This document shows positions 1,157-10,803 of a stretch of DNA of 64,000 nt, in pieces. The translations under genes were made by a program, and so were the position numbers. A model generated the notes under the pieces. It was given only the letters and a program-made list of their open reading frames with translations, did no database searches and was not told the DNA's origin. Source of the stretch: an uncultured Paracoccaceae bacterium (GTDB taxonomy: Bacteria; Pseudomonadota; Alphaproteobacteria; Rhodobacterales; Rhodobacteraceae); NCBI GenBank assembly GCA_947503965.1, contig CANNFU010000007.1:1-64000 (forward strand), read 5' to 3'. The stretch's first letter is position 1; every line of letters starts with the position of its first letter.

Positions 1157-1378
1157 TTAAAAGCCAAGACCTGCGTATTTGTTCTTGAACTTGGACACGC
1201 GGCCGCCGGCATCCATCAGGCGGGTGCCGCCACCGGTCCATGCGGGGTGCACGGATGGGTCGATGTCCAGCGACATCTGGTCGCCTTCCTTGCCCCATGT
1301 GGATTTCATCTGAACCACGGTGCCATCGGTCATCTTGACGTCGATGATGTGATAATCGGGGTGAATATCTTTTTTCAT
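1157..1378 (-). CDS. rpmE: 50S ribosomal protein L31
   Basis: This 73-residue protein is bacterial L31, a small protein of the large ribosomal subunit. It opens with [10 protein letters not shown] and contains the family segment [13 protein letters not shown] followed by the basic end [15 protein letters not shown]. The CxxC pairs of zinc-binding L31 are absent, so this is the zinc-independent (C-minus) form. It lies 11 nt after rplS on the same strand and precedes a strong terminator, so it is the last gene of the ribosomal operon. Confidence 0.96.
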
Positions 1379-1389
1379 GACGCAGGTCC

Positions 1390-1773
1390 TTATGCTTCGG
1401 CGCCCGTGGGGGCCTTGTAGTTTGCGACTTCTGCGATCCGTGCGGACTTACCGCGACGCGACCGGAGGTAATACAGCTTTGCACGACGCACGCGACCACG
1501 GCGAACCACGGTGATGCTGTCGATATTGGTGGAATGCAGCGGGAACACACGCTCCACACCTTCACCAAAGGAAATCTTGCGCACTGTGAACGACCCGGCG
1601 ATGCCTTTGCCGTTCTTGCGGGCGATGCACACGCCTTCATAGTTCTGCACACGGCTGCGCGTGCCTTCGGTCACTTTGTAACCGACGCGGATGGTGTCAC
1701 CCGCTTTGAAATCGGGGATGTCTTTCCCCAGCGCAGCGACTTGCTCCGCTTCGAGTTGTGCGATCAGGTCCAT
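1390..1773 (-). CDS. rplS: 50S ribosomal protein L19
   Basis: L19 sits at the interface of the 30S and 50S subunits. The protein has 127 residues, close to the family norm, with the conserved stretch [19 protein letters not shown], then [15 protein letters not shown] and [20 protein letters not shown]. An AAAGGAG ribosome-binding site precedes the ATG at 1773. A short hairpin sits just upstream of that site. The gene follows trmD after a 328-nt gap and is followed at once by rpmE. The order rpsP-rimM-trmD-rplS is the classical bacterial operon. Confidence 0.97.
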
Positions 1774-2101
1774 CTGACACGCTCCTTTATCTGGTACGGG
1801 TTGTCCCGTAGCGTTTCTTGCGTGGCCCAGAGCTCTGCGTCGTTATCGGGTCCGCCAGTGCGCCCGCCAGAGATGCGTCATCATTCTTTGTTGTGGTTGT
1901 CCGGCCTGTCTGGTGAGGATCAGATCAACGAAGACCCGCTCAATATCCAGTGGTTCCATAAACCATCACCCGGAATCAGCAGGCTGACCGGGAATGCTGC
2001 CGTATAGGCGGATGTGCCCATGCGATCAAGGGGTTTTCATGTCGGATCAGGACAAGCGCGCAGCGGCAAATGCTGGGCCGGTATTCAGCGTATAAACAGA
2101 G
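1774..2101 (-). other. 328-nt trmD-rplS intergenic region, possible 38-codon ORF
   Basis: No recognisable gene lies here. On the minus strand an ATG at 1959 opens 38 codons (MEPLDIERVFVDLILTRQ at its start) that end at 1843. It has no convincing ribosome-binding site and no known relatives that I can name. The length of the gap is unusual inside this otherwise compact operon, so it may hold an internal promoter or an L19 leader. Confidence 0.3.
1781..1810 (-). promoter_or_regulatory. Hairpin just upstream of the rplS ribosome-binding site
   Basis: TACGGG (1795-1800) and CCCGTA (1805-1810) form a 6-bp stem with a 4-nt loop, a few nucleotides before the AAAGGAG site (1781-1788) of rplS. Ribosomal protein genes are often autoregulated through leader structures, and L19 leaders are described in other phyla. 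A regulatory role here is inference from position only. Confidence 0.35.
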
Positions 2102-2896
2102 TCAGGTTTCTTTGCTCTTATAGATTTCCCAAAGATCGGGACGGCGCGCTTTTGTGATCTGCTCGGCCTGCGCTTTGCGCCACTCCGCTATCTTTGCATG
2201 ATTACCTGAAAGCAGCACTTCGGGGATCGCATGTCCCTGCCACTCAGCCGGTTTTGTATATTGGGGATGCTCCAGCAGCCCGGTCGCAAAGCTCTCCTCG
2301 ACAGCGCTTTCGGCATTGCCCAGAACACCGGGCAACAACCGCACGCTTGCATCGATCATCGCCTGCGCCGCGATCTCACCTCCGGTCAAAACAAAATCAC
2401 CCAGTGATACTTCCTGAATGCCGAAATGTGTGAGCACCCGTTCATCCACCCCTTCGAACCGCCCGCACAGCAGCGTCACGCCATCATGACGGGCCCAGTC
2501 GCGGGCCATCGCCTGATCAAAGCGGCGACCCCGGGGGGACAGATAGACCAGCGGCATCGCGCCCTTTGCGGCACGCCGCGCGTCGGTAATCGCGTTTTCC
2601 AGCACATCCGCCCGCAGGACCATCCCGGCCCCACCGCCCGCAGGTGTGTCATCGACATTGCGGTGCTTGCCGATGCCATAATCCCGCAGATTATAGGTTT
2701 CCAGCCGCCACAGCCCGTCTTGTAATGCCTTGCCTGTCAGGCTTTCGCCCAGCACACCCGGAAAGGCTTGGGGAAACAGCGTGATGATCTGCGCAACCCA
2801 TGACCCCACAAGGGCAGGGGTATCAGTGATAACCTCACGCGGTTGCAGGGTCGGGCGGGCGGTCAGGCGACCGTGGGATTTGGGCGTTTTGGACAT
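2102..2896 (-). CDS. trmD: tRNA (guanine-N1)-methyltransferase TrmD
   Basis: TrmD methylates N1 of G37 in tRNAs and prevents +1 frameshifting. The enzyme is a SPOUT knot methyltransferase that works as a dimer. Visible family motifs are IITLFPQAFPG near residue 37, the tRNA/SAM segment DDTPAGGGAGMVLRADV, the knot strands YLSPRGRRFDQ and LLCGRFEGVDERV, and GDFVLTGGEIAA. The length is 264 residues, slightly above the usual ~250, because of a ~30-residue N-terminal extension (MSKTPKSHGRLTARPTLQPR) before the core. It lies 110 nt after rimM, separated by a large inverted repeat. Confidence 0.96.
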   Translation of the reverse strand: MSKTPKSHGRLTARPTLQPREVITDTPALVGSWVAQIITLFPQAFPGVLGESLTGKALQDGLWRLETYNLRDYGIGKHRNVDDTPAGGGAGMVLRADVLENAITDARRAAKGAMPLVYLSPRGRRFDQAMARDWARHDGVTLLCGRFEGVDERVLTHFGIQEVSLGDFVLTGGEIAAQAMIDASVRLLPGVLGNAESAVEESFATGLLEHPQYTKPAEWQGHAIPEVLLSGNHAKIAEWRKAQAEQITKARRPDLWEIYKSKET

Positions 2897-2936
2897 GTGC
2901 TGCGTCTAGCGATTTCGGACAGCAAAACCAAGACCA

Positions 2937-3006
2937 CCCGTCCCGGGCTTGACCCGGGACCTCCACCTCGGTCCTGTTCGAGGTCCCGGGTCAAGCCCGG
3001 GACGGG
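2937..3006. repeat. Perfect 27-bp inverted repeat between trmD and rimM
   Basis: Positions 2937-2963 and 2980-3006 are exact reverse complements, with a 16-nt loop. Each arm is itself a hairpin, because TCCCGGG and CCCGGGA flank CTTGA. The right arm touches the rimM stop codon at 3007. Short dispersed palindromes with this CCCGGG-TCAAG-CCCGGG core are common in alphaproteobacterial genomes. I infer a REP-like element rather than a terminator, because there is no T run. Confidence 0.85.
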
Positions 3007-3510
3007 TTAGAATAATCCATCAGGCGGATCGGCAATGATGCGTCCGGTTTCAAGGTCAACGGTTGGTACGGCTGCTGCGGTGAATGGCAAAAGGACGGTA
3101 TCCGTTGCACCGGGCACTGCGATTTCCAATAAATCCCCCGCCCCGTGATCCATCACGTTGCGCACGGTGCCCAGCGTTGCGCCACCCGTGTCGAGCACGG
3201 AAAGCCCAATCAAATCGGCATAATAGTATTCATCGTCCGACAGGGGCGGCATCACGGCCCGGTCGGCATAAAGCGCGGTGTTGCGCAGTGCATCCGCGTC
3301 TTCCTTGGTCACAACCCCGTCGATCCGGGCCGAAAACCCGTTCTTGAGCTGCCCGGTCAGGACCACCTGCGCAAAGGCGCGGCCATCTTCAGTATAAAGC
3401 GGAGTGTAGTCGGCAATTGCCGCCGGATCCGCGCAAAACGATTTCAGGCGCACCTCGCCATGCACCCCAAAGGACCCACCCAAGCTGCCAACGATCACAC
3501 GGTCATTCAT
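3007..3510 (-). CDS. rimM: Ribosome maturation factor RimM
   Basis: RimM binds S19 and assists assembly of the 30S head domain. The 167 residues show the N-terminal RimM barrel ([19 protein letters not shown]) and a C-terminal PRC-barrel-like part ([20 protein letters not shown] and [19 protein letters not shown]). Length and order fit the family. Its ATG overlaps the stop of a 48-codon ORF upstream in an ATGA junction, so its translation is probably coupled to that ORF. Confidence 0.95.
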
Positions 3511-3653
3511 TCACGCTCCATTCCCACGCAGACATCCATGATCCACAGGCTGCCGATGGCTTCACATGCTTCACGCGCATTGCTGCGTTCAAACAGCATG
3601 CCCGCCACAAAGGCGAACATCACAAGGATGATCGTGCGCAGCAAGCGAAACAT
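3507..3653 (-). CDS. Small 48-residue membrane protein coupled to rimM
   Basis: I do not recognise this protein. It starts [20 protein letters not shown], a single hydrophobic segment after a basic end, and continues with a soluble tail ([14 protein letters not shown], then [14 protein letters not shown]) that holds two cysteines. The topology predicts a single-pass inner-membrane or exported peptide. Its TGA overlaps the rimM ATG in an ATGA junction, which supports real translation. The ribosome-binding site is weak. It lies inside the rpsP-rimM interval, after a strong hairpin. Confidence 0.6.
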
Positions 3654-3676
3654 ATCGACGCCTGTGAAAGGGAAGG

Positions 3677-3704
3677 TGCTGCCCGGTCATGTGACCGGGC
3701 AGCA
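3677..3704. other. Strong hairpin between rpsP and the 48-codon ORF
   Basis: Positions 3677-3689 and 3692-3704 are perfect 13-nt reverse complements (TGCTGCCCGGTCA and its complement) separated by 2 nt. On the minus strand only a weakly T-rich stretch follows. It could attenuate transcription or protect the rpsP 3' end, letting S16 be made in excess over RimM and TrmD. Confidence 0.7.
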
Positions 3705-3712
3705 TAGGGGGC

Positions 3713-4117
3713 TTACTCTTCAGCCGCAGCTTCTTCTGCGGGCGCTTCTTCAGCCGGTGCATTGGCAGCTTCTTCAGCAGCTTTCGCCTTTTCGGCCTTC
3801 TCCTCGGCACGCGCCTGAGCAGCCTTGCCTGGTGTACCCTTCTTGGGGTTGCTGCGGTCCTTCTTGGGCATCTCGCCTGCGGCTTCCAGCATACGGGCGA
3901 CACGGTCGGTCGGCTGTGCGCCTTCGCCCAACCAGTACTTCACGCGCTCAATATTCATTTTCACGCGCTCTTCGCTGTCCTTGGGCAGCATTGGGTTATA
4001 GGTGCCCAGCTTTTCGATGAAGCGGCCATCGCGCGGCATTCGGCTGTCTGCAGCCACAATCGCATAAAATGGACGTTTCTTTGAGCCGCCACGGGCCAGT
4101 CTGATCTTCATTGCCAT
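3713..4117 (-). CDS. rpsP: 30S ribosomal protein S16
   Basis: S16 is a primary assembly protein of the 30S subunit. The core [20 protein letters not shown], followed by [19 protein letters not shown], is diagnostic, and an AAAGGAG site precedes the start. The protein has 134 residues, compared with about 80-90 in many bacteria. The excess is a C-terminal low-complexity tail rich in Ala, Glu and Lys ([20 protein letters not shown] and onward), a common feature of alphaproteobacterial S16. It follows the chorismate mutase gene in the same direction. Confidence 0.97.
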
Positions 4118-4142
4118 CTGGTTTTCTCCTTTAAGATGGGGT

Positions 4143-4160
4143 TGAGGGGGGGCCCCCTCA
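4143..4160. other. GC-rich palindrome at the chorismate mutase stop
   Basis: TGAGGGGG (4143-4150) is complementary to CCCCCTCA (4153-4160), which includes the TGA stop of the chorismate mutase gene. It lies just before the rpsP ribosome-binding site. It may modulate read-through from the upstream genes to rpsP. No T run is present. Confidence 0.5.
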
Positions 4161-4454
4161 GGATTGGTGTTGTTTGTGGTGTTGAATGACTTCCTGAATG
4201 ATGAAGTTCAGGAATTTCTTGGCAAATTCCGGGTCAAGATCGGCCCGGTCTGCAAGATCGGTGAGCCGCGCGATCTGGGCTTCTTCACGCGCGGGGTCGG
4301 AGGGGGGCAGGTCATGTTCGGCTTTCAGCCGACCCACGGCCTGCGTATGCTTGAACCGCTCGCCCAGCGTATAGACGAGGATGGCATCAAGCCGGTCGAT
4401 GCTTTCGCGATGACCCTTGAGGATCTCCGCGGCACGGGTGACGGCATCAGTCAT
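4158..4454 (-). CDS. Chorismate mutase, AroQ type
   Basis: This 98-residue all-helical protein is a monofunctional AroQ chorismate mutase, which converts chorismate to prephenate for phenylalanine and tyrosine synthesis. The family pattern is visible: [20 protein letters not shown] in helix 1, then [20 protein letters not shown], which carries the Arg, Lys, Arg and Glu positions that line the active site. The ATG at 4454 is preferred because AAAGGAG sits 6 nt upstream. An ATG at 4460 is too close to that site. It overlaps the end of the first GNAT gene by 8 nt. Confidence 0.9.
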
Positions 4455-5010
4455 GGCCATCTCCTTTGTTATTGTAATGATAAACCGCAACATGCGCGCC
4501 AAGCGGGTGGGTTCCGGCCTTGAAACCGCCCAGCTTTTCGGCAACCCGGACGGAGGCATCATTGCCATCGGCGATGTAGCTGACGAAACCGGTTCCATAG
4601 ATCGCGCGACACATCGGCAGCAGAGCTGCGGCGGCTTCGGTCGCAATGCCGCGCCCTTCGGCCTCTTCGGTCAATAACCAGCCTAGCTCAGGGTCCGGGT
4701 CGCCAAACTCATGACCCAAAAGAACAAGCCCCAGCACGCCACCTTGCTTGTCGCAGATCGTCAGCGCGCCGTGGCCGCGCAAAACCCAGCCAGCCACCAG
4801 CTGGTTGAAATCCAGCCAGGCATCCTCGGGCGACATCGGCCCGCCAATATGAATGGCGCGCGCGCTGGTAAAGATCGACTCCAGTGTGGCCCAATCGCTG
4901 ATACGCGGCAGACGCAGCACCAGCCGCGCGGTCTCGATCACCGGCACGGTGGCGGTAATGGCGGCAACCTGTGCGGCACCTTTCGCAGGCATGTTGGTCC
5001 ACGGGGTCAT
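4447..5010 (-). CDS. GNAT family acetyltransferase, array copy 1
   Basis: This 187-residue protein has the RimJ/RimL-type GNAT fold, which transfers acetyl from acetyl-CoA to an amine. The opening strand is ETARLVLRLPRISDW, the acetyl-CoA motif A is EGRGIATEAAAAL and the end strand region is YIADGNDASVRVAEKLGG. It has an N-terminal extension of about 24 residues that the other copies lack. Its ATG overlaps the stop of copy 2 by 4 nt and its 3' end overlaps the chorismate mutase start. The substrate is unknown. Confidence 0.9.
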   Translation of the reverse strand: MTPWTNMPAKGAAQVAAITATVPVIETARLVLRLPRISDWATLESIFTSARAIHIGGPMSPEDAWLDFNQLVAGWVLRGHGALTICDKQGGVLGLVLLGHEFGDPDPELGWLLTEEAEGRGIATEAAAALLPMCRAIYGTGFVSYIADGNDASVRVAEKLGGFKAGTHPLGAHVAVYHYNNKGDGHD

Positions 5011-5513
5011 GCGGCACCCCGCATGTGGCGAAAAACGAAAGTATCGTCACCATCGCCATAGGCTTTTGCAGCATGTGGGTCACGCACACCGCCCAGCTTT
5101 TCCGCCACACGGATCGAAGCCGCATTTTCCACATGCACATAGCTGACGATTGAGGCCAAATCGGTGGTCGCAAATGTATGGTCCAGCATGGCGCGCCCAC
5201 CTTCGGTCGCCAGACCCAGCCCGTCGAACCCGTCAAAAACGAACCAACCACATTCCGGCTCTGGAAAATGCGGTGGATGAACCAGACCGACGCCGCCTGC
5301 CAGTTTGCCGTCATAGACCATCGCCAAGGTACCAAAGCCGTAAAGCGGCCATGTCGCGACATCATTCGTGAACCAGGTCCACGCCGCATCACGATCAAAG
5401 GGCCCCCCCATATAGCAGGCGCGTTCGGAGGCCAGGAAAGCCGCATAGGTATCAAAATCGCTCCGGGCATACGGGCGCAGCGTCAGCCGTTCGGTCTGCA
5501 ATGTCGGGATCAT
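5007..5513 (-). CDS. GNAT family acetyltransferase, array copy 2
   Basis: This 168-residue GNAT protein starts MIPTLQTERLTLRPYARSDF. The core has CYMGGPFDRDAAW and ends with SYVHVENAASIRVAEKLGG. Its acetyl-CoA motif reads FDGLGLATEGGRAM, where the usual Arg/Lys of motif A is Leu and the following EAA is EGG, so cofactor binding may differ from its neighbours. The start at 5513 gives an ATGA overlap with copy 3 and matches the other copies. An in-frame Met ten codons upstream is less likely. Confidence 0.9.
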   Translation of the reverse strand: MIPTLQTERLTLRPYARSDFDTYAAFLASERACYMGGPFDRDAAWTWFTNDVATWPLYGFGTLAMVYDGKLAGGVGLVHPPHFPEPECGWFVFDGFDGLGLATEGGRAMLDHTFATTDLASIVSYVHVENAASIRVAEKLGGVRDPHAAKAYGDGDDTFVFRHMRGAA

Positions 5514-6022
5514 GTGCGCGCCTCCGGTGCAGGATGCCGCCACAGATGCAGATTGCCGTAAACGGCGTGCTGAAACAGTGGGCCGTCCACGCAGCTCAGC
5601 CGTTTTGCGAGCGCAACGGAACGGGTGTTTACCGGGTCAATCGCGCTGATCAGCGTGGTCCAGCCCAGCGTGTCATAGGCATAGGTCCGAGCAGCCATTG
5701 CGGCCTCAAACGCAACACCGCGCCCTTCAGCCGCGTCAAACAACGACCAGGCCAGTTCCGGTTCCGGCCAGCCATCAGGATAATAAAGCCCTACGATGCC
5801 CAACGGTTCATCCGTCTTGGCGTCAGCCACCATCCAGCGGCCATATCCGCGCAAATGCCAGTGCCCCAGGATTGCAGCCAATTTTTGAAACGCATCGCTG
5901 CGCGGGAACGGCCCGCCCAGATGAACCGTCCGCGGCGAGGCGCAAAATGCGGCATAGGCGTCAAAATCGTCCCAGCGGGGTGCACGCAGGATCAGACGCT
6001 CGGTGTGCAAGCTCGGGATCAT
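5510..6022 (-). CDS. GNAT family acetyltransferase, array copy 3
   Basis: This 170-residue RimJ/RimL-like GNAT protein starts MIPSLHTERLILRAPRWDDF. Motif A is EGRGVAFEAAMAARTYAYD. The C-terminal part, SAIDPVNTRSVALAKRLSCV, departs from the AEKLG pattern of most copies, and the last residues (FQHAVYGNLHLWRHP) differ too, which suggests a distinct substrate. The first 13 residues differ from copy 4 at one position. Both junctions are 4-nt ATGA overlaps. Confidence 0.9.
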   Translation of the reverse strand: MIPSLHTERLILRAPRWDDFDAYAAFCASPRTVHLGGPFPRSDAFQKLAAILGHWHLRGYGRWMVADAKTDEPLGIVGLYYPDGWPEPELAWSLFDAAEGRGVAFEAAMAARTYAYDTLGWTTLISAIDPVNTRSVALAKRLSCVDGPLFQHAVYGNLHLWRHPAPEART

Positions 6023-6519
6023 GCGGCCACCTTTGGGTGACGGTAAGTCACCGCAAGAGCGTCATGGGCTGGCGGATGACGATCATCACGGATTGCGCCC
6101 AGCTTCTCGGCCAACCTGATCGACGGCACGTTGTCGCGGTCAATATAGCTGACAATGCCGCTGTCTGGATCATACGCCCAGCCCCAGCCCAGTGCGGCGG
6201 TCGCGGCCTCATAGGCAAAGCCACGTCCTGCGGAACCGTCAAACAGGGACCAGCCGATTTCTCGTTCGGCCTGATGGGGTGGATGGTGCAGGCCGCAGAC
6301 ACCGACGGCTGCGCCTGCATGTTCAATCATCCACCAGCCAAAGCCGTGCAGCTGCCAATGGCCCACATCTGCTGCAAAAAGCGCCCATGCCGCTTTCTCG
6401 GAAAGTGGCCCGCCGATATGCGCTGTGCGATCAGACTTGTAAAACGCGGCATAAGCATCGAAATCACTGCGCTGATAAGGGCGCAGGATCAGCCGTTCGG
6501 TGTGTAAGATCGGGATCAT
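6019..6519 (-). CDS. GNAT family acetyltransferase, array copy 4
   Basis: This 166-residue GNAT protein starts MIPILHTERLILRPYQRSDF. It shows the shared segment AHIGGPLSEKAAWALF, then HWQLHGFGWWMIEH, motif A AGRGFAYEAATAALGW and SYIDRDNVPSIRLAEKLGAI. The family acetylates protein N-termini, side-chain amines or small amines. The sequence does not say which applies here. Overlaps of 4 nt on both sides place it in the middle of the array. Confidence 0.9.
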   Translation of the reverse strand: MIPILHTERLILRPYQRSDFDAYAAFYKSDRTAHIGGPLSEKAAWALFAADVGHWQLHGFGWWMIEHAGAAVGVCGLHHPPHQAEREIGWSLFDGSAGRGFAYEAATAALGWGWAYDPDSGIVSYIDRDNVPSIRLAEKLGAIRDDRHPPAHDALAVTYRHPKVAA

Positions 6520-7022
6520 GCGGCCGCCCTCGCATGCCGATAGACCAACGCGTCGGGCGCAGGGCCGTCCGCATCCGGGTCCAACGCAGCGCCCAGCTTT
6601 TCGGCCAGCCGGATGGATCGGGCGTTGTCGGGCCAGACATAGCTGACCGCAGTATCCCAGCCCAGCACATCAAAGGCATGTCGCAAGCTGGCGCGCGCGG
6701 CCTCGGTGGCAAAGCCTTTACCCTCGGCCTTCGCAGACAGCATCATCCACCCGATCTCATTCTCGGGCCAATGGGGCGGGGTCCATGGGCCGACCAGCCC
6801 GATGATCGTGTCGTCATCGTGCAGGGTCACGGCCCACATGCCGATGCCATATATCTCCCAATGCCCCAGTTCGGCGGCCCAGCTTTTCCAAGTTGGCCCC
6901 AGATCACCACTGCTAGAGAAGAAACCAGCGCGGTCGGTCATCATGAAGTCACGATAAACCGGCCAGTCATCACGGTTTGGGCGGCGCAGGTTGAGGCGTT
7001 CGGTTTGCAGCGTCATGCTCAT
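6516..7022 (-). CDS. GNAT family acetyltransferase, array copy 5
   Basis: This 168-residue GNAT protein starts MSMTLQTERLNLRRPNRDDW. Motif A is EGKGFATEAARASLRHAFD and the last motif is SYVWPDNARSIRLAEKLGAA. The segment after strand 2 reads FFSSSGDLGPTWKSWAAELG, whereas most of the other copies have GGP at this point, so the acceptor pocket probably differs. The spacing Trp-Pro-x-Asn-Glu-Ile-Gly-Trp follows the array consensus. ATGA overlaps bind it to copies 4 and 6. Confidence 0.9.
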   Translation of the reverse strand: MSMTLQTERLNLRRPNRDDWPVYRDFMMTDRAGFFSSSGDLGPTWKSWAAELGHWEIYGIGMWAVTLHDDDTIIGLVGPWTPPHWPENEIGWMMLSAKAEGKGFATEAARASLRHAFDVLGWDTAVSYVWPDNARSIRLAEKLGAALDPDADGPAPDALVYRHARAAA

Positions 7023-7531
7023 GCTGTCGCCCCGTCATAGCGGTAGACAAGATCATAACCACCGTCAGGTGTAAGCGCGTCAGGATCGACGACCCCGCCA
7101 AGCCGCCTGGCCACCGCAATAGAGGCCGCGTTTTCCGGGTCAATATACGACACCGCAGTCGCCAGACCCAGCGTATCCCAGGCCCATGGCATTAGGGTTT
7201 GCATCGCTTCGGTGATGTAGCCCTGACCTTCGTACTCAGGCTTCCAAAGGGTCCACGCAAATTCAGGCTCCGGCCAGTTTGTCGGGTACCACGGCCCGAC
7301 AAAGCCAAGCGGTGTTCCGTCTTTCCGGCATGCCGTAAAGGCTGAATATCCGCGTAATATCCAAAGGCCGGTGATATTTCCAAAGGCCCAATGCGCGCGT
7401 CGTGCGTCGATATGCGGGCCACCGATATAGCGGGTGCGGTCACTGGCGCAGAATGCCAGAAACGCGGGCATGTCATCCAGATGCGGCACGCGCAGCGTCA
7501 GTCGCTCTGTGGTCAGCGTCGGAAAGCTCAT
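7019..7531 (-). CDS. GNAT family acetyltransferase, array copy 6
   Basis: This 170-residue GNAT protein starts MSFPTLTTERLTLRVPHLDD. It retains YIGGPHIDARRAHWAFGNI, the consensus NWPEPEFAWTLW, motif A EGQGYITEAMQTLMPWAWD and SYIDPENAASIAVARRLGGV. Motif A carries Ile where most copies have Ala, a conservative change. It is coupled to copies 5 and 7 by 4-nt overlaps. The substrate cannot be read from the sequence. Confidence 0.9.
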   Translation of the reverse strand: MSFPTLTTERLTLRVPHLDDMPAFLAFCASDRTRYIGGPHIDARRAHWAFGNITGLWILRGYSAFTACRKDGTPLGFVGPWYPTNWPEPEFAWTLWKPEYEGQGYITEAMQTLMPWAWDTLGLATAVSYIDPENAASIAVARRLGGVVDPDALTPDGGYDLVYRYDGATA

Positions 7532-8076
7532 GCGATCGCCTCTGCCGCCTGTCGCATTGCGCGGGGGTCGTCATGGGCGAGATGCCGGAACACGATGACT
7601 TTCTCGCCATCCACCACATCGCGGCGTTCTTCCATCGCACCAAGGCGAGATGCCAACCGCAACGACCGGTGGTTATCCGAAGCGATCAGCGAGATCAGCG
7701 GCTCCAGCCCTAGCGAACGCCCGGCCCATTCGCGCACGGCGCAGGCCGCTTCGAACGCATAGGATTTACCCTCGAACCCGTCGAACATGTGCCAGGCGAG
7801 TTCCGGCTGCGGCCATTCGATATGGTTGATGATCCCGACCCGACCCGTAGCCATGCCGGTCTTACGCTCGGCCACGGTGAAAAACCCGTAGCCATGCCAG
7901 TGCCAATGCCCGATCCCGGCAATGAACCCGCGCCATGCATCGCGTTCAGTCCCTTTGCCACCCACAGCCTCCATCCGCGCAGACCGGGTGACCCATGCGG
8001 TAAAGGCCGCAAGGTCCCGCTTCTGCGGGCCGCGCAATTCAAGGCGCGCCGTGGTGAGGGTGGGGGCAGGGGTCAT
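7528..8076 (-). CDS. GNAT family acetyltransferase, array copy 7
   Basis: This 182-residue GNAT protein starts MTPAPTLTTARLELRGPQKR. The consensus Trp-Pro-Gln-Pro-Glu-Leu-Ala-Trp is present. Motif A reads EGKSYAFEAACAVREWAG, so the central Gly of the Arg/Gln-x-x-Gly-x-Gly/Ala pyrophosphate loop is replaced by Ser. It ends with a longer basic and acidic tail (AHDDPRAMRQAAEAIA). It may be weakly active or may bind acetyl-CoA differently. It overlaps copy 6 by 4 nt and lies 3 nt after copy 8. Confidence 0.88.
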   Translation of the reverse strand: MTPAPTLTTARLELRGPQKRDLAAFTAWVTRSARMEAVGGKGTERDAWRGFIAGIGHWHWHGYGFFTVAERKTGMATGRVGIINHIEWPQPELAWHMFDGFEGKSYAFEAACAVREWAGRSLGLEPLISLIASDNHRSLRLASRLGAMEERRDVVDGEKVIVFRHLAHDDPRAMRQAAEAIA

Positions 8077-8079
8077 CGG

Positions 8080-8634
8080 TTACAGCCCTGCCACTGGTTT
8101 AGGATCGGCTGCGGTTGCCCGCGCGTCTTTCTCACGTGGCAATGCATAAACGTCGCGCGTCACGCCATCGGGGAATTGCGCACGGCGTGTGATGCTGCCG
8201 CCAAGGCGCTCTGCCAAGCGGCGAGCCGCCTTGTTTTCATCGCGCATATGCGTCTCAACGATTGGCCAGCCGAGCGTTTGGTAAGCAAACGCGATGACTG
8301 CTTTTGAGGCCTCGGTCGCAAAGCCGACGCCGCGCTGATCGGGCAAGAGCCACCATGTCAGTTCGGCACTTGGCCAGCCACGCGGATGAGACAGTCCACA
8401 GCCGCCGATCGCCTGATCGGTATCGCGGCGCACGATGATCCATTTCCCAAAGCCACGCAGCGCCCAATGACCAATATCCGTGGCCAACACGCGAAAGGCC
8501 TGATCAGGACGCAACGGCCCACCATAATTCCCCGACCCAACGGCATCCGCAAAAAAGGTCTGATAGACGGCAAAGTCCTCAGCCTGCGGGGCGCGTAAAC
8601 GTAACCGTTCTGTCATGAGAGCGGGGATGGTCAT
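8080..8634 (-). CDS. GNAT family acetyltransferase, array copy 8
   Basis: This 184-residue GNAT protein is the first of the array after ffh. It starts MTIPALMTERLRLRAPQAED and has NYGGPLRPDQAFRVLATDIG, motif A QRGVGFATEASKAVIAFAYQ and a diverged end (THMRDENKAARRLAERLGGS) with an Ala/Lys-rich tail. The start overlaps the ffh stop in an ATGA junction, so it is translated from the same message as the SRP protein. Confidence 0.9.
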   Translation of the reverse strand: MTIPALMTERLRLRAPQAEDFAVYQTFFADAVGSGNYGGPLRPDQAFRVLATDIGHWALRGFGKWIIVRRDTDQAIGGCGLSHPRGWPSAELTWWLLPDQRGVGFATEASKAVIAFAYQTLGWPIVETHMRDENKAARRLAERLGGSITRRAQFPDGVTRDVYALPREKDARATAADPKPVAGL

Positions 8635-10121
8635 TTCTTCTTTCCAAACCCTGACAGACCGGGGGGCAGTTGCATGCCGCCGCCGCCCAGTCCGGGCAGA
8701 CCGCCGGGCATCTTGCCTTGCAGTTCCTTCGCGGCTTTCGCCATCGCCTCGGGGTCGTTCATGTCGGGCATGCCGCCGCCCTTGCCGAACATGCCCTTCA
8801 TGGCCTGTTTCAGCATGCCCCCCTTGCCCATCTTCTTCATCATGCCCGCCATCTGCTTGTGCTGTTTCACAAGGCGGTTGAGTTCGGACACTTCCAGACC
8901 GGCCCCTTTGGCGATGCGTTTCTTGCGGGAGGCGGCGAGCAGATCGGGGTTCGCCCGTTCGGCCTTGGTCATCGAATTGATCAGGGCGATCTGGCGTTTC
9001 AGGATGCTGTCATCGAACCCCGCCTGATCCATCTGTTTGGCCATTTTCGCGGCCCCGGGCATCATGCCCATCATCCCTTCCATGCCGCCCATCTTCATCA
9101 TCTGTTCCAGCTGCATTTTCAGGTCATTCATGTTGAAACGGCCCTTCTGGAACCGCTTCATCATGCGCTCGGCCTGTTCGGCCTCGATCGTTTCCTGCGC
9201 CTTTTCGACAAGGGCCACGATATCGCCCATGCCAAGGATACGGCCCGCGATCCGTTCCGGCTCGAACGTCTCAATCGCGTCCATCTTTTCGCCCAGACCG
9301 ACAAAGCGGATCGGTTTGCCCGTGATGGCGCGCATTGACAGGGCCGCACCGCCGCGCCCGTCCCCGTCCATCCGGGTCAGGACAACGCCGGTCACACCGA
9401 TCTTGTCGTCAAATTCCTGCGCGACATTCACCGCATCCTGACCGGTCAGGCCATCGACGACCAGTAGTGTTTCACGCGGGTTGGCGACATCACGCACCTC
9501 GGCGGCCTGCGCGATCAGTTCCTGATCGATGTGCAAGCGGCCCGCAGTGTCGAGCATATAGACATCATAGCCACCAAGGCTGGCCTGCGTCTTGGCCCGC
9601 TTGGCGATCTGCACCGGCGTTTCACCGGGAACAATCGGCAGGGTATCCACGCCGATCTGCCCACCGAGAATCGCCAATTGCTCCATCGCGGCAGGGCGGT
9701 TGGTGTCGAGCGAGGCCATCAGCACCCGCTTGCCCTCACGCTCTTTCAGCCGCTTGGCAAGCTTCGCGGTTGTCGTCGTCTTACCCGAGCCTTGCAGACC
9801 GACCATCAGGATCGGGGCAGGGGGGTTGTCGATCTTCAGCGCGCCGGGATCGGCATCGCCGGTCAGCACATGTTTCAGCTCATCATGGACGATCTTGACG
9901 ACCTGCTGGCCGGGGGTAATGGATTTGGTGACCGCCTGACCGGTCGCCTTGTCCTGCACGGCCTTCACGAAATCACGGGCGACGGGCAGGGATACGTCGG
10001 CCTCCAGCAAGGCCACCCGCACCTCGCGCAGGGCGGTCTTGACATCATCCTCTGACAGCGCACCCTGCTTGGTCAGCTTGTCGAAAACACCAGACAGGCG
10101 TTCGGATAGATTTTCAAACAT
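8631..10121 (-). CDS. ffh: Signal recognition particle protein Ffh (SRP54)
   Basis: Ffh binds 4.5S RNA and signal peptides and delivers ribosomes to FtsY at the membrane. The 496 residues show the N domain, the GTPase G domain with P-loop GLQGSGKTTTTAK (108-120), LDTNRPAAMEQL, LDTAGR and TRMDGDGRGGAAL, and a Met-rich M domain (MMKMGGMEGMMGMMPGAAKM). The tail is Gly/Met-rich (MPGGLPGLGGGGMQLPPGL). It is the first gene of the long operon that continues into the GNAT array and the ribosomal genes. Confidence 0.98.
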   Translation of the reverse strand: MFENLSERLSGVFDKLTKQGALSEDDVKTALREVRVALLEADVSLPVARDFVKAVQDKATGQAVTKSITPGQQVVKIVHDELKHVLTGDADPGALKIDNPPAPILMVGLQGSGKTTTTAKLAKRLKEREGKRVLMASLDTNRPAAMEQLAILGGQIGVDTLPIVPGETPVQIAKRAKTQASLGGYDVYMLDTAGRLHIDQELIAQAAEVRDVANPRETLLVVDGLTGQDAVNVAQEFDDKIGVTGVVLTRMDGDGRGGAALSMRAITGKPIRFVGLGEKMDAIETFEPERIAGRILGMGDIVALVEKAQETIEAEQAERMMKRFQKGRFNMNDLKMQLEQMMKMGGMEGMMGMMPGAAKMAKQMDQAGFDDSILKRQIALINSMTKAERANPDLLAASRKKRIAKGAGLEVSELNRLVKQHKQMAGMMKKMGKGGMLKQAMKGMFGKGGGMPDMNDPEAMAKAAKELQGKMPGGLPGLGGGGMQLPPGLSGFGKKK

Positions 10122-10275
10122 CGGCCAGGGCCCTCATGTCGTTTCGGTTACCGGGCCTATATAAGAACCCAAGGCAAAAAGCAGTAGCGCCCCCGTGGGC
10201 GCGACGCGCTGACGGAGGGCGATCCCCTGATGTCGGGGACCGGAAAGCTGACGCTATCCGGGTGTTGAGGGGCGT
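10122..10275 (-). promoter_or_regulatory. Upstream region of ffh with GC-rich hairpins
   Basis: This 154-nt gap holds the likely ffh promoter. On the minus strand a TTATATAGG element lies about 40 nt before the start codon and could be the -10 box, but no clear -35 is visible. Two short GC stems (CGCCC/GGGCG near 10190 and CCCC/GGGG near 10225-10242) lie upstream and could end transcription from the preceding membrane-protein genes. Confidence 0.35.
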
Positions 10276-10803
10276 TTACGCCTGTCGCTGGTTTGAGTCA
10301 ACATCGATGGACAGCCACGCATTGATGGTGTTGGCAATCCCGATAATTCCACTTTCGCTCCCGCGAGCGCCTGGTACTTTGTAAATCTCAGGAGGGTCTT
10401 CGGAAGACAATATCAATACCAGGCTCGGGACGGGCTTGCCGTATGAAACCGCGTGTCTCAGCATCGCCTTGGCGTCGATTGAATCCCAAACATTTGCCTC
10501 AATCAGATTGTGAAGATCAAACATTCTGGCGTCAGTCTTCAACAGAGTTCGTCGTGTAATCGTAATGGTGTTGTCAGCTTGGTTGAATGTCAAATTCACC
10601 AAATCAACCCACTCTTCCGGCTTAAGTATCCACAAGACGACACATAGCGAGAACATAATAAAGGCTGATAGAATGTCGCCCGTCGACAACGCGTAGATGA
10701 ATGCACCGAGAAACGTCATGGTAAGGGTAGCCAAGCCCAAGAAGACTGGCCACGGAAACGCGCGTAGATGAAGTTTTTGTGGGCTATGCTCGACGACATA
10801 CAT
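10276..10803 (-). CDS. Uncharacterised membrane protein, paralogue of the next gene
   Basis: This is a 175-residue protein of unknown function. Two closely spaced membrane segments lie at about residues 18-60 (VFLGLATLTMTFLGAFIYAL, then ILSAFIMFSLCVVLWIL). They are followed by a soluble part with FNQADNTITITRRTLLKTDA and the end IIGIANTINAWLSID. The layout matches the protein encoded at 10828-11316: an opening LHLRAFPW against LILRSVPW, two membrane helices, a beta-rich middle and an Ala-x-x-Ile-Asn-x-Trp-Leu end. The two genes are probably a tandem duplication. No function can be named. Confidence 0.65.
   Translation of the reverse strand: MYVVEHSPQKLHLRAFPWPVFLGLATLTMTFLGAFIYALSTGDILSAFIMFSLCVVLWILKPEEWVDLVNLTFNQADNTITITRRTLLKTDARMFDLHNLIEANVWDSIDAKAMLRHAVSYGKPVPSLVLILSSEDPPEIYKVPGARGSESGIIGIANTINAWLSIDVDSNQRQA

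What the first reader, a model, noticed from the sequence alone, without database searches (positions are those of the whole stretch)
4447..8634. Eight tandem GNAT acetyltransferases inside the ffh-to-ribosomal-protein operon
Eight consecutive genes encode RimJ/RimL-like GNAT proteins of 166-187 residues. All lie on the same strand between ffh and the chorismate mutase-rpsP-rimM-trmD-rplS genes. All internal junctions are 4-nt ATGA overlaps, except a 3-nt gap between copies 7 and 8, and the array also overlaps ffh and the chorismate mutase gene. The copies share a core but differ at the acceptor side, which points to repeated duplication with specialisation. Established knowledge: RimI, RimJ and RimL acetylate ribosomal proteins S18, S5 and L12. 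Inference: the array could be a co-translational or ribosomal acetylation set, or a set of small-amine detoxifiers.
Basis: partly seen in the sequence, partly recalled or inferred. Interest (0 to 1): 0.82.

Follow-up and report, generated by a model that had tools for sequence, protein, structure and literature searches.

The report
Ancient acetyltransferase array in ribosomal operon
Eight different acetyltransferase genes sit head to tail between a protein-targeting gene and ribosomal genes in a marine-type bacterium, and most sampled relatives in its family keep different selections of the same old, ordered set at this very spot; what the enzymes act on is still open.

Summary
In detail: eight intact PF13302 GNAT genes (166-187 aa, 28-48% identical) lie between ffh and the chorismate mutase-rpsP-rimM-trmD-rplS genes, joined by 4-nt overlaps, one 3-nt gap and an 8-nt overlap with chorismate mutase. 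Comparison turns this into a family feature. Of 53 sampled genera, 46 carry 1-7 copies of this subfamily directly after ffh, and 123 of 127 subfamily hits are at this junction. In 17 of 17 genomes outside the family the relatives have no ffh, chorismate mutase or rpsP within 1.5 kb. Copies are not recent duplicates: 8 of 313 members of multi-copy arrays have their nearest relative in the same array, and order is largely conserved, so genomes hold ordered subsets of an old set. Active-site residues are nearly invariant, dN/dS is 0.04-0.20, and class-specific residues avoid the acetyl-CoA segment. Closest structures are 2fsr (uncharacterised) and PA3944 (a Ser/Glu GNAT acting on a polymyxin amine), not RimJ/RimL. 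Best reading: an accessory repertoire of amine N-acetyltransferases with different acceptors, coupled to the SRP-ribosome operon. A ribosome-linked protein acetylation set remains possible. No substrate is known; my paper searches did not find this array described.

The parts
8631..10121 (-). ffh (SRP GTPase), upstream boundary of the array
   Evidence: TIGR00959 568 bits
8080..8634 (-). GNAT g1 (class Q), 184 aa; Ala at the position of the PA3944 catalytic Ser
   Evidence: PF13302 4e-28; Ala in 8 of 8 class Q members; best array relative 83% identical
7528..8076 (-). GNAT g2 (class D), 182 aa; AcCoA-motif Gly replaced by Ser
   Evidence: PF13302 1.4e-23; Ser in 21 of 24 class D members; best relative 89%
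7019..7531 (-). GNAT g3 (class M), 170 aa
   Evidence: PF13302 1.2e-28; best relative 88%
6516..7022 (-). GNAT g4 (class F), 168 aa
   Evidence: PF13302 8e-26; best relative 74%
6019..6519 (-). GNAT g5, 166 aa; no close orthologue in the sample
   Evidence: PF13302 5.8e-28; best relative 52%
5510..6022 (-). GNAT g6 (class G), 170 aa; structure predicted
   Evidence: PF13302 1.7e-29; AF2 mean pLDDT 97.4; best relative 77%
5007..5513 (-). GNAT g7 (class N), 168 aa
   Evidence: PF13302 1.9e-25 (run on 5007-5531); best relative 92%
4447..5010 (-). GNAT g8 (class S), 187 aa, N-terminal extension; terminal-position class
   Evidence: PF13302 1.2e-20; best relative 79%; class S is last in 5 of 5 multi-gene arrays
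4158..4454 (-). chorismate mutase, downstream boundary of the array
   Evidence: PRK09239 148 bits and TIGR01795 115 bits, both over cut-off; PF01817
3713..4117 (-). rpsP (S16)
   Evidence: TIGR00002 over cut-off
3007..3510 (-). rimM
   Evidence: TIGR02273 over cut-off
2102..2896 (-). trmD
   Evidence: TIGR00088 over cut-off
1390..1773 (-). rplS (L19)
   Evidence: TIGR01024 over cut-off

Best explanation
The array is an old set of GNAT enzymes at the ffh-chorismate mutase junction of this bacterial family. It diversified into many classes with largely fixed relative positions and is now kept as different ordered subsets in different genomes (well supported). Each enzyme most likely transfers acetyl from acetyl-CoA to a primary amine of a small molecule or short peptide, in the PA3944 manner: a near-invariant Glu and usually a Ser in the active site, with a different acceptor pocket in each class (inferred from fold and residues). 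The set works as an accessory repertoire for inactivating amine-bearing compounds, and translational coupling inside the SRP-ribosome operon gives it steady growth-linked production (inferred; not shown).
For: Locus fidelity: 46 of 53 sampled genera with ffh have 1-7 copies right after ffh; 122 of 127 subfamily hits lie within 9 kb downstream on the same strand and one more is a contig-break continuation. Old classes: 305 of 313 members of multi-copy arrays are nearest to a copy in another genome. Order: 746 of 792 reciprocal-nearest order comparisons agree (not independent of each other); 49 of 412 class-pair observations break the inferred order against a mean of 150 and a minimum of 116 in 200 shuffles; in the window's genus 0 of 81 pairs in 19 arrays break one master order (the order was read from the same arrays). 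Function kept: Glu 362 of 364, Ser 335 of 363; median dN/dS 0.04-0.20 for the seven window copies that have orthologues, from 1 to 11 usable pairs each. Acceptor diversity: 28 of the 30 most class-specific columns lie outside the AcCoA segment. Fold: 2fsr TM 0.88 and PA3944 TM 0.88-0.89, against RimL 0.71-0.76 and SpeG 0.59-0.73 in the 50 matches listed. PA3944 acetylates the 3-Dab amine of polymyxins with Ser148 essential (PMC8072286, abstract and passages). Copy number rises with genome size over 50 genera (rho 0.47, p 0.0006) and with the number of other first-look GNAT candidates (rho 0.52). Coupling: 90 of 114 internal junctions in the named loci are -4 and 106 overlap.
Against: No substrate is known for any array member; 2fsr is uncharacterised. 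The location between ffh and rpsP would be odd for a detoxification set unless it is inheritance or expression convenience. The genome-size correlation is not corrected for phylogeny, is weaker within the genus (rho 0.44, p 0.076, n 17), and the partial correlation with other GNATs given size is not significant (rho 0.23, p 0.11). Class Q (g1) and most of class H lack the Ser, so PA3944 chemistry cannot hold for all. Constraint is weaker than on ffh: for the window pairs visible, ffh has dN/dS 0.016-0.034; over all 671 pairs the medians are 0.165 (GNAT), 0.141 (ffh) and 0.125 (chorismate mutase). Codon usage of the GNATs is ordinary. Six of 15 class trees do not follow ffh better than chance (C, E, I, J, L, O), so some exchange or wrong classing is likely. 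The -4 junction count leans on a start-codon rule that favoured ATG starts near a 4-nt overlap, and the segment used for the class-specific columns was set by me after seeing them.
Confidence: 0.45

Rival explanations
1. A ribosome-linked or co-translational protein acetylation set: each class acetylates a different kind of protein N-terminus (or ribosomal protein), a bacterial counterpart of the eukaryotic NAT enzymes, which is why it sits between the SRP gene and ribosomal protein genes.
For: The array sits at the ffh-chorismate mutase-rpsP junction in 46 of 53 sampled genera. A second GNAT site, of another subfamily, lies between rplU-rpmA and obgE: four genes in this genome and at least one in 17 of the 20 genera I fetched, out of 54 genomes with an obgE hit. 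The fold is also compatible with RimL (TM 0.71-0.76).
Against: No RimI/RimJ/RimL model match at E 0.1. RimJ-like and RimI-like proteins lie elsewhere in the genome, both below their curated cut-offs. Class content differs between species of one genus (D, F, DN, DGN, QDMF.GNS), and seven of 53 genera have none at this locus, hard to square with fixed ribosomal targets. Copy number scales with genome size.
Confidence: 0.22
2. Polyamine or metabolic-amine acetylation for internal homeostasis (SpeG-like roles), with classes tuned to different cellular amines.
For: Weak SpeG model matches for three copies (g3 7e-4, g4 0.005, g7 0.04); SpeG structures among Foldseek matches.
Against: All far below the SpeG cut-off of 218 bits; closer to PA3944 and 2fsr.
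Confidence: 0.15
3. The array is mostly neutral: a permissive junction that accumulates and loses GNAT copies without function of its own.
For: Copy number is variable (0-7 in the 53-genus sample, mean 2.30, variance 3.45; 7 zeros seen, 5.3 expected from Poisson). Decaying remnants occur in L047 and L065.
Against: dN/dS 0.04-0.20 for window copies, near-invariant active-site Glu and Ser, conserved order over the family; 3 of the 136 matches listed report an internal stop.
Confidence: 0.08
4. Toxin-type GNATs (as in GNAT-RHH toxin-antitoxin modules) that acetylate aminoacyl-tRNA.
For: GNAT fold and placement among translation genes.
Against: No antitoxin-sized gene fits between copies (junctions -4 or +3); no PADLOC match at E 0.01; ordered retention at one chromosomal site is unlike mobile modules.
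Confidence: 0.03

Closest known systems
PA3944 of Pseudomonas aeruginosa (PDB 6edd, 7kps)
   Same: Fold (TM 0.88-0.89, 29-30% identity); Glu102 equivalent in 362 of 364 array members and Ser148 equivalent in 335 of 363.
   Different: About 30% identity; substrate of the array unknown; array copies are multiple, syntenic and class-diversified; class Q and most of class H lack the Ser. The PA3944 locus itself was not compared.
2fsr, Agrobacterium acetyltransferase
   Same: Best sequence match in the PDB (profile 184 bits) and best structural match (TM 0.88, 38%); scores like an array member.
   Different: Uncharacterised (so listed in PMC8072286, passages). Its own genomic context was not looked at; in 17 of 17 non-family genomes with a strong hit the locus holds no ffh, chorismate mutase or rpsP within 1.5 kb.
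RimJ / RimL ribosomal-protein N-acetyltransferases
   Same: GNAT fold; the RimJ-like protein of this genome also matches PF13302.
   Different: No match to their curated models at E 0.1; TM 0.71-0.76 at 14-15% identity; a RimJ-like protein is encoded elsewhere in this genome.
Bleomycin N-acetyltransferase (BlmB/TlmB, PDB 2zw4-2zw7)
   Same: Weak matches to the GNAT part (6e-7 at best); TM 0.82.
   Different: Far below cut-off; array proteins are single-domain.
GNAT site rplU-rpmA-[GNAT]-obgE
   Same: GNAT genes inserted in a ribosomal-protein operon, variable copy number.
   Different: Another GNAT subfamily (17-54 bits with the array profile), one copy in 14 of the 20 genera fetched.

Membership tests
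GNAT, PF13302 (Acetyltransf_3) | Match over the curated cut-off across the domain | tested here: met
   8 of 8, 75-104 bits against 25.4
GNAT, PF13302 (Acetyltransf_3) | Acetyl-CoA binding motif A | tested here: met
   Motif Gly residues 356 of 364 and 333 of 364 over the array family; class D has Ser in 21 of 24 at the second
PA3944-type Ser/Glu GNAT | Glu102 equivalent | tested here: met
   362 of 364 members, 8 of 8 in the window
PA3944-type Ser/Glu GNAT | Ser148 equivalent, essential in PA3944 | tested here: inconclusive
   7 of 8 in the window; g1 has Ala; 335 of 363 in all
PA3944-type Ser/Glu GNAT | Acetylation of a peptide-antibiotic amine | not testable with these tools
   needs enzyme assays
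RimI / RimJ / RimL | Match to the curated NCBIfam model | tested here: not met
   no match at E 0.1 for any of 8
RimI / RimJ / RimL | Acetylates a ribosomal protein N-terminus | not testable with these tools
   needs proteomics
SpeG spermidine acetyltransferase | Match over the curated cut-off (218 bits) | tested here: not met
   best 19 bits
Bleomycin N-acetyltransferase BlmB/TlmB | Full-length match over cut-off (625 bits) | tested here: not met
   best 29 bits, partial
GNAT toxin-antitoxin module | Adjacent antitoxin gene | tested here: not met
   no room between copies; neighbours are ffh and chorismate mutase; no PADLOC match at E 0.01

The most novel reading that the evidence does not exclude
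A family-wide, position-coded acetylation set: each slot of the array between the SRP gene and the ribosomal genes is a distinct enzyme class that acetylates a distinct class of nascent-protein N-termini or translation-associated amines, giving each species its own acetylation code, a bacterial counterpart of the eukaryotic NAT repertoire, with a second set at the rplU-rpmA-obgE operon.
Probability: 0.18. Interest if true: 0.85.

Novelty: new variant of a known kind. Interest (0 to 1): 0.58.

Why it matters
It shows a gene array that stays at one chromosomal junction inside an SRP-ribosome operon in 46 of 53 sampled genera of a bacterial family, while its members diverge into many old classes and each genome keeps an ordered subset. 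That is a natural library of related GNATs with much the same active site and different acceptor sides, useful for learning how acceptor specificity is written, and it makes two sharp alternatives directly testable: an amine-inactivating repertoire or a ribosome-linked protein acetylation set.

Tried and rejected
Recent tandem duplication as the main source was rejected: 8 of 313 members of multi-copy arrays have the nearest relative in the same array (they are in L065, L158 and L173). Rim membership was rejected by model. Defence-system membership was rejected. High expression by codon usage was not seen: GNAT values 0.51-0.65 against a background median of 0.58 in 42 window ORFs, with ffh 0.67 (reference set of four ribosomal genes only). 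Promoter scan: one promoter-like site in 1200-10400 against 2.7 expected, and it lies in the chorismate mutase gene. Terminator scan: 15 sites on both strands against 8.2 expected; four lie within the array on its own strand, with at most 4 G-C pairs, so weak internal termination is not excluded. Gene-tree agreement with ffh was mixed: 9 of 15 classes exceed the 95% shuffle level, 6 do not. A constraint to keep at least one copy was not supported: 7 zeros seen, 5.3 expected. Plasmid search with g1 gave at most 49% identity among the rows listed. Paper searches with GNAT, ffh, rpsP, chorismate mutase, Rhodobacteraceae, obgE/rpmA, tandem and expansion terms returned nothing that, from its listing, describes this array (listings only, not all hits listed). 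Of the papers, only PMC8072286 was opened, and only its abstract text and passages were seen.

Limits: class labels are one cut of a FastTree tree. The class-wide sample scored at most 14 candidates a genome. Species names are from record titles. dS values near or above 1 are unreliable, and differ slightly for the same pairs because of alignment settings. Some of the 136 arrays are cut by contig ends. Start codons were chosen by a rule that favours ATG near a 4-nt overlap, so the junction counts lean that way. The Fisher test (p 0.002) uses a segment (residues 97-145 of g6) that I set after seeing the columns and an assumed total of 168 columns, so its p is only a guide. The 20 obgE loci were mostly taken from the top of the hit list, not at random.
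Full report
Eight intact GNAT genes of 166-187 aa lie on the minus strand from 8634 to 4447. Six of the seven internal junctions are 4-nt overlaps, one is a 3-nt gap, the first gene overlaps ffh by 4 nt and the last overlaps the chorismate mutase gene by 8 nt. All eight match PF13302 well above cut-off, and the flanking genes are confirmed as ffh, chorismate mutase, S16, RimM, TrmD and L19. Pairwise identity is 28-48%. The window's genus appears to be the one that holds Yoonia: four unnamed same-genus genomes carry arrays identical to those of named Yoonia or Loktanella records.

The arrangement is a family feature. Eighty ffh loci from titled genome records show ffh, then GNATs, then chorismate mutase and rpsP; 76 of 80 have at least one GNAT, three of the other four end at or near a contig edge, and in one (L036) 262 nt without a GNAT match separate ffh from chorismate mutase. 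The largest array has 11 copies plus a remnant (L065, Actibacterium sp. 188UL27-1). A sample of one genome per genus (56 genomes, the window's own included) gives 53 others with a usable ffh: 7 with no copy at ffh, 15 with one, 12 with two, 7 with three, 4 with four, 4 with five, 2 with six and 2 with seven (hits at E 1e-30 or better). Of 127 subfamily hits in these 53, 122 lie within 9 kb downstream of ffh on its strand, one (G265) is the same array broken by a contig end (L198), and four are elsewhere (G261, G258, G172, G267). One more hit, in a genome without a usable ffh (G285), could not be placed. In the window's genus (19 genomes) array members score above 170 bits with the array profile and all other hits at E 1e-12 score below 94. 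In a class-wide sample of 240 genomes, 17 genomes outside the family have a strong hit (E 1e-34). Six of these have ffh on the same contig, 13 kb away at the nearest; in eleven ffh is on another contig. None of the 21 loci fetched from these 17 genomes holds ffh, chorismate mutase or rpsP within 1.5 kb of the GNAT, while both family loci run as a control hold all three. The association with ffh therefore looks like an innovation of this family.

The copies form old classes with preferred positions. In 366 members from 145 loci (136 arrays, some cut by contig ends; 2 halves of one broken array; 7 other loci), 305 of 313 members of multi-copy arrays have the nearest relative in another genome. 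Reciprocal-nearest pairs keep their order in 746 of 792 comparisons; these comparisons are not independent. Cutting the tree into classes gives an inferred order broken by 49 of 412 pair observations, against a mean of 150 and a minimum of 116 in 200 shuffles with the order re-derived each time. In the window's genus the arrays read as ordered subsets of one string: QDMF.GNS (window), DMLFGNS, QDLGNS, DFH, DGN, DG, DN, D, F and so on, with 0 of 81 pairs out of order in 19 arrays (the string was read from these arrays, and class A in one of them was not counted). Some classes are positional: B is last in 29 of 32, H in 12 of 14, S in 5 of 5 multi-gene arrays, while D, K, L and J are last in none of 19, 12, 12 and 11. 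Class Q is an exception, first in four arrays and last in two. Class distances follow ffh distances beyond the 95% shuffle level in 9 of 15 classes. The simplest account is an ancestral array with differential loss plus some exchange; remnants in L047 and L065 show loss under way.

The enzymes look functional. Between window copies and their orthologues median dN/dS is 0.04-0.20 for the seven copies that have one, from a single usable pair in four of them; g5 has no relative above 52% identity. The window pairs visible show ffh at 0.016-0.034, so the GNATs are under weaker constraint than ffh. Aligned to PA3944, the Glu102 equivalent is present in 362 of 364 members and the Ser148 equivalent in 335 of 363. 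Most exceptions are class-bound: Ala in 8 of 8 class Q (window g1) and 11 of 14 class H, Cys in 4 of 5 class T. Class D (window g2) has Ser for Gly in the acetyl-CoA motif in 21 of 24. The 30 most class-specific columns fall outside the acetyl-CoA segment in 28 cases (segment set after seeing them), mostly in the first helices, the strands and loop before the Glu, and the last hairpin, which line the acceptor side in GNATs (general knowledge, not measured on a complex here).

The structure of g6 is predicted with mean pLDDT 97.4. Foldseek ranks 2fsr (TM 0.88, 38% identity) and PA3944 (TM 0.88-0.89, 29-30%) first; bleomycin acetyltransferase reaches 0.82, RimL 0.71-0.76, SpeG 0.59-0.73. PA3944 acetylates the 3-Dab amine of polymyxins and needs Ser148, while Glu102 affects substrate preference; 2FSR is listed as uncharacterised (PMC8072286, abstract and passages). 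No array protein matches the RimI, RimJ or RimL models at E 0.1. A RimJ-like protein (1.9e-28, 99.5 bits, below the curated cut-off of 190) and a RimI-like one (72 bits, below 86.4) lie elsewhere in the genome.

What it does is inferred. Variable class content within one genus, absence at this locus in 7 of 53 genera, scaling of copy number with genome size (rho 0.47, p 0.0006, n 50; not corrected for phylogeny, and rho 0.44, p 0.076 within the genus) and the PA3944 relationship favour an accessory set of amine-acetylating enzymes over fixed ribosomal targets. The operon position keeps the ribosome-linked reading alive, helped by a second GNAT site, of another subfamily, between rplU-rpmA and obgE: four genes in this genome and at least one in 17 of 20 genera fetched. 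I give 0.45 to the amine-acetylating repertoire, 0.22 to protein acetylation, 0.15 to internal amine homeostasis, and small weights to neutral residence and toxins. The evolutionary description itself I hold at about 0.9.

Novelty: the enzymes belong to a known superfamily and resemble PA3944 and 2fsr, but a family-wide, largely collinear, subset-retained GNAT array at one junction of the SRP-ribosome operon did not turn up in the paper searches made (listings only). I rate it a new variant of a known kind.

Noticed in passing
L009:9262-11910 (own genome contig C5): Second GNAT cluster: four GNAT genes between rplU-rpmA and obgE plus one on the opposite strand, of a different subfamily; the site holds 1-3 GNATs in 17 of 20 other genera fetched.
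   Followed up: partly
window 8080-8634 (class Q) and classes H and T in other arrays: The active-site Ser is replaced class-wide: Ala in class Q (8 of 8) and most of class H (11 of 14), Cys in class T (4 of 5); yet the one usable window class Q pair has dN/dS 0.12.
   Followed up: partly
L065:11485-18349: Largest array seen: 11 copies plus a short remnant and an 808-nt stretch without a GNAT match, in Actibacterium sp. 188UL27-1.
   Followed up: no
L047:2114-2586 and L065:14596-14889: GNAT remnants inside arrays, consistent with copies being lost.
   Followed up: no
G289:C10:43939-44439 and G307:C7:70799-71305: Array matches reported with one TGA inside; whether these are broken copies or a match running past a gene end was not settled.
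   Followed up: no
window 3704-3677: A 12-pair hairpin just after rpsP, the terminator-like site with the most pairs in the region scanned.
   Followed up: no
L196:2487-4397: In one genus about 1.9 kb without a GNAT match separates the single GNAT from chorismate mutase.
   Followed up: no
plasmid records NZ_CP099918.1 and NZ_CP013139.1: Best plasmid matches of g1 are 49% and 47% identical GNATs on roughly 0.9-Mb Pseudoalteromonas replicons, and class Q takes different array positions, so this class may have moved between lineages.
   Followed up: partly
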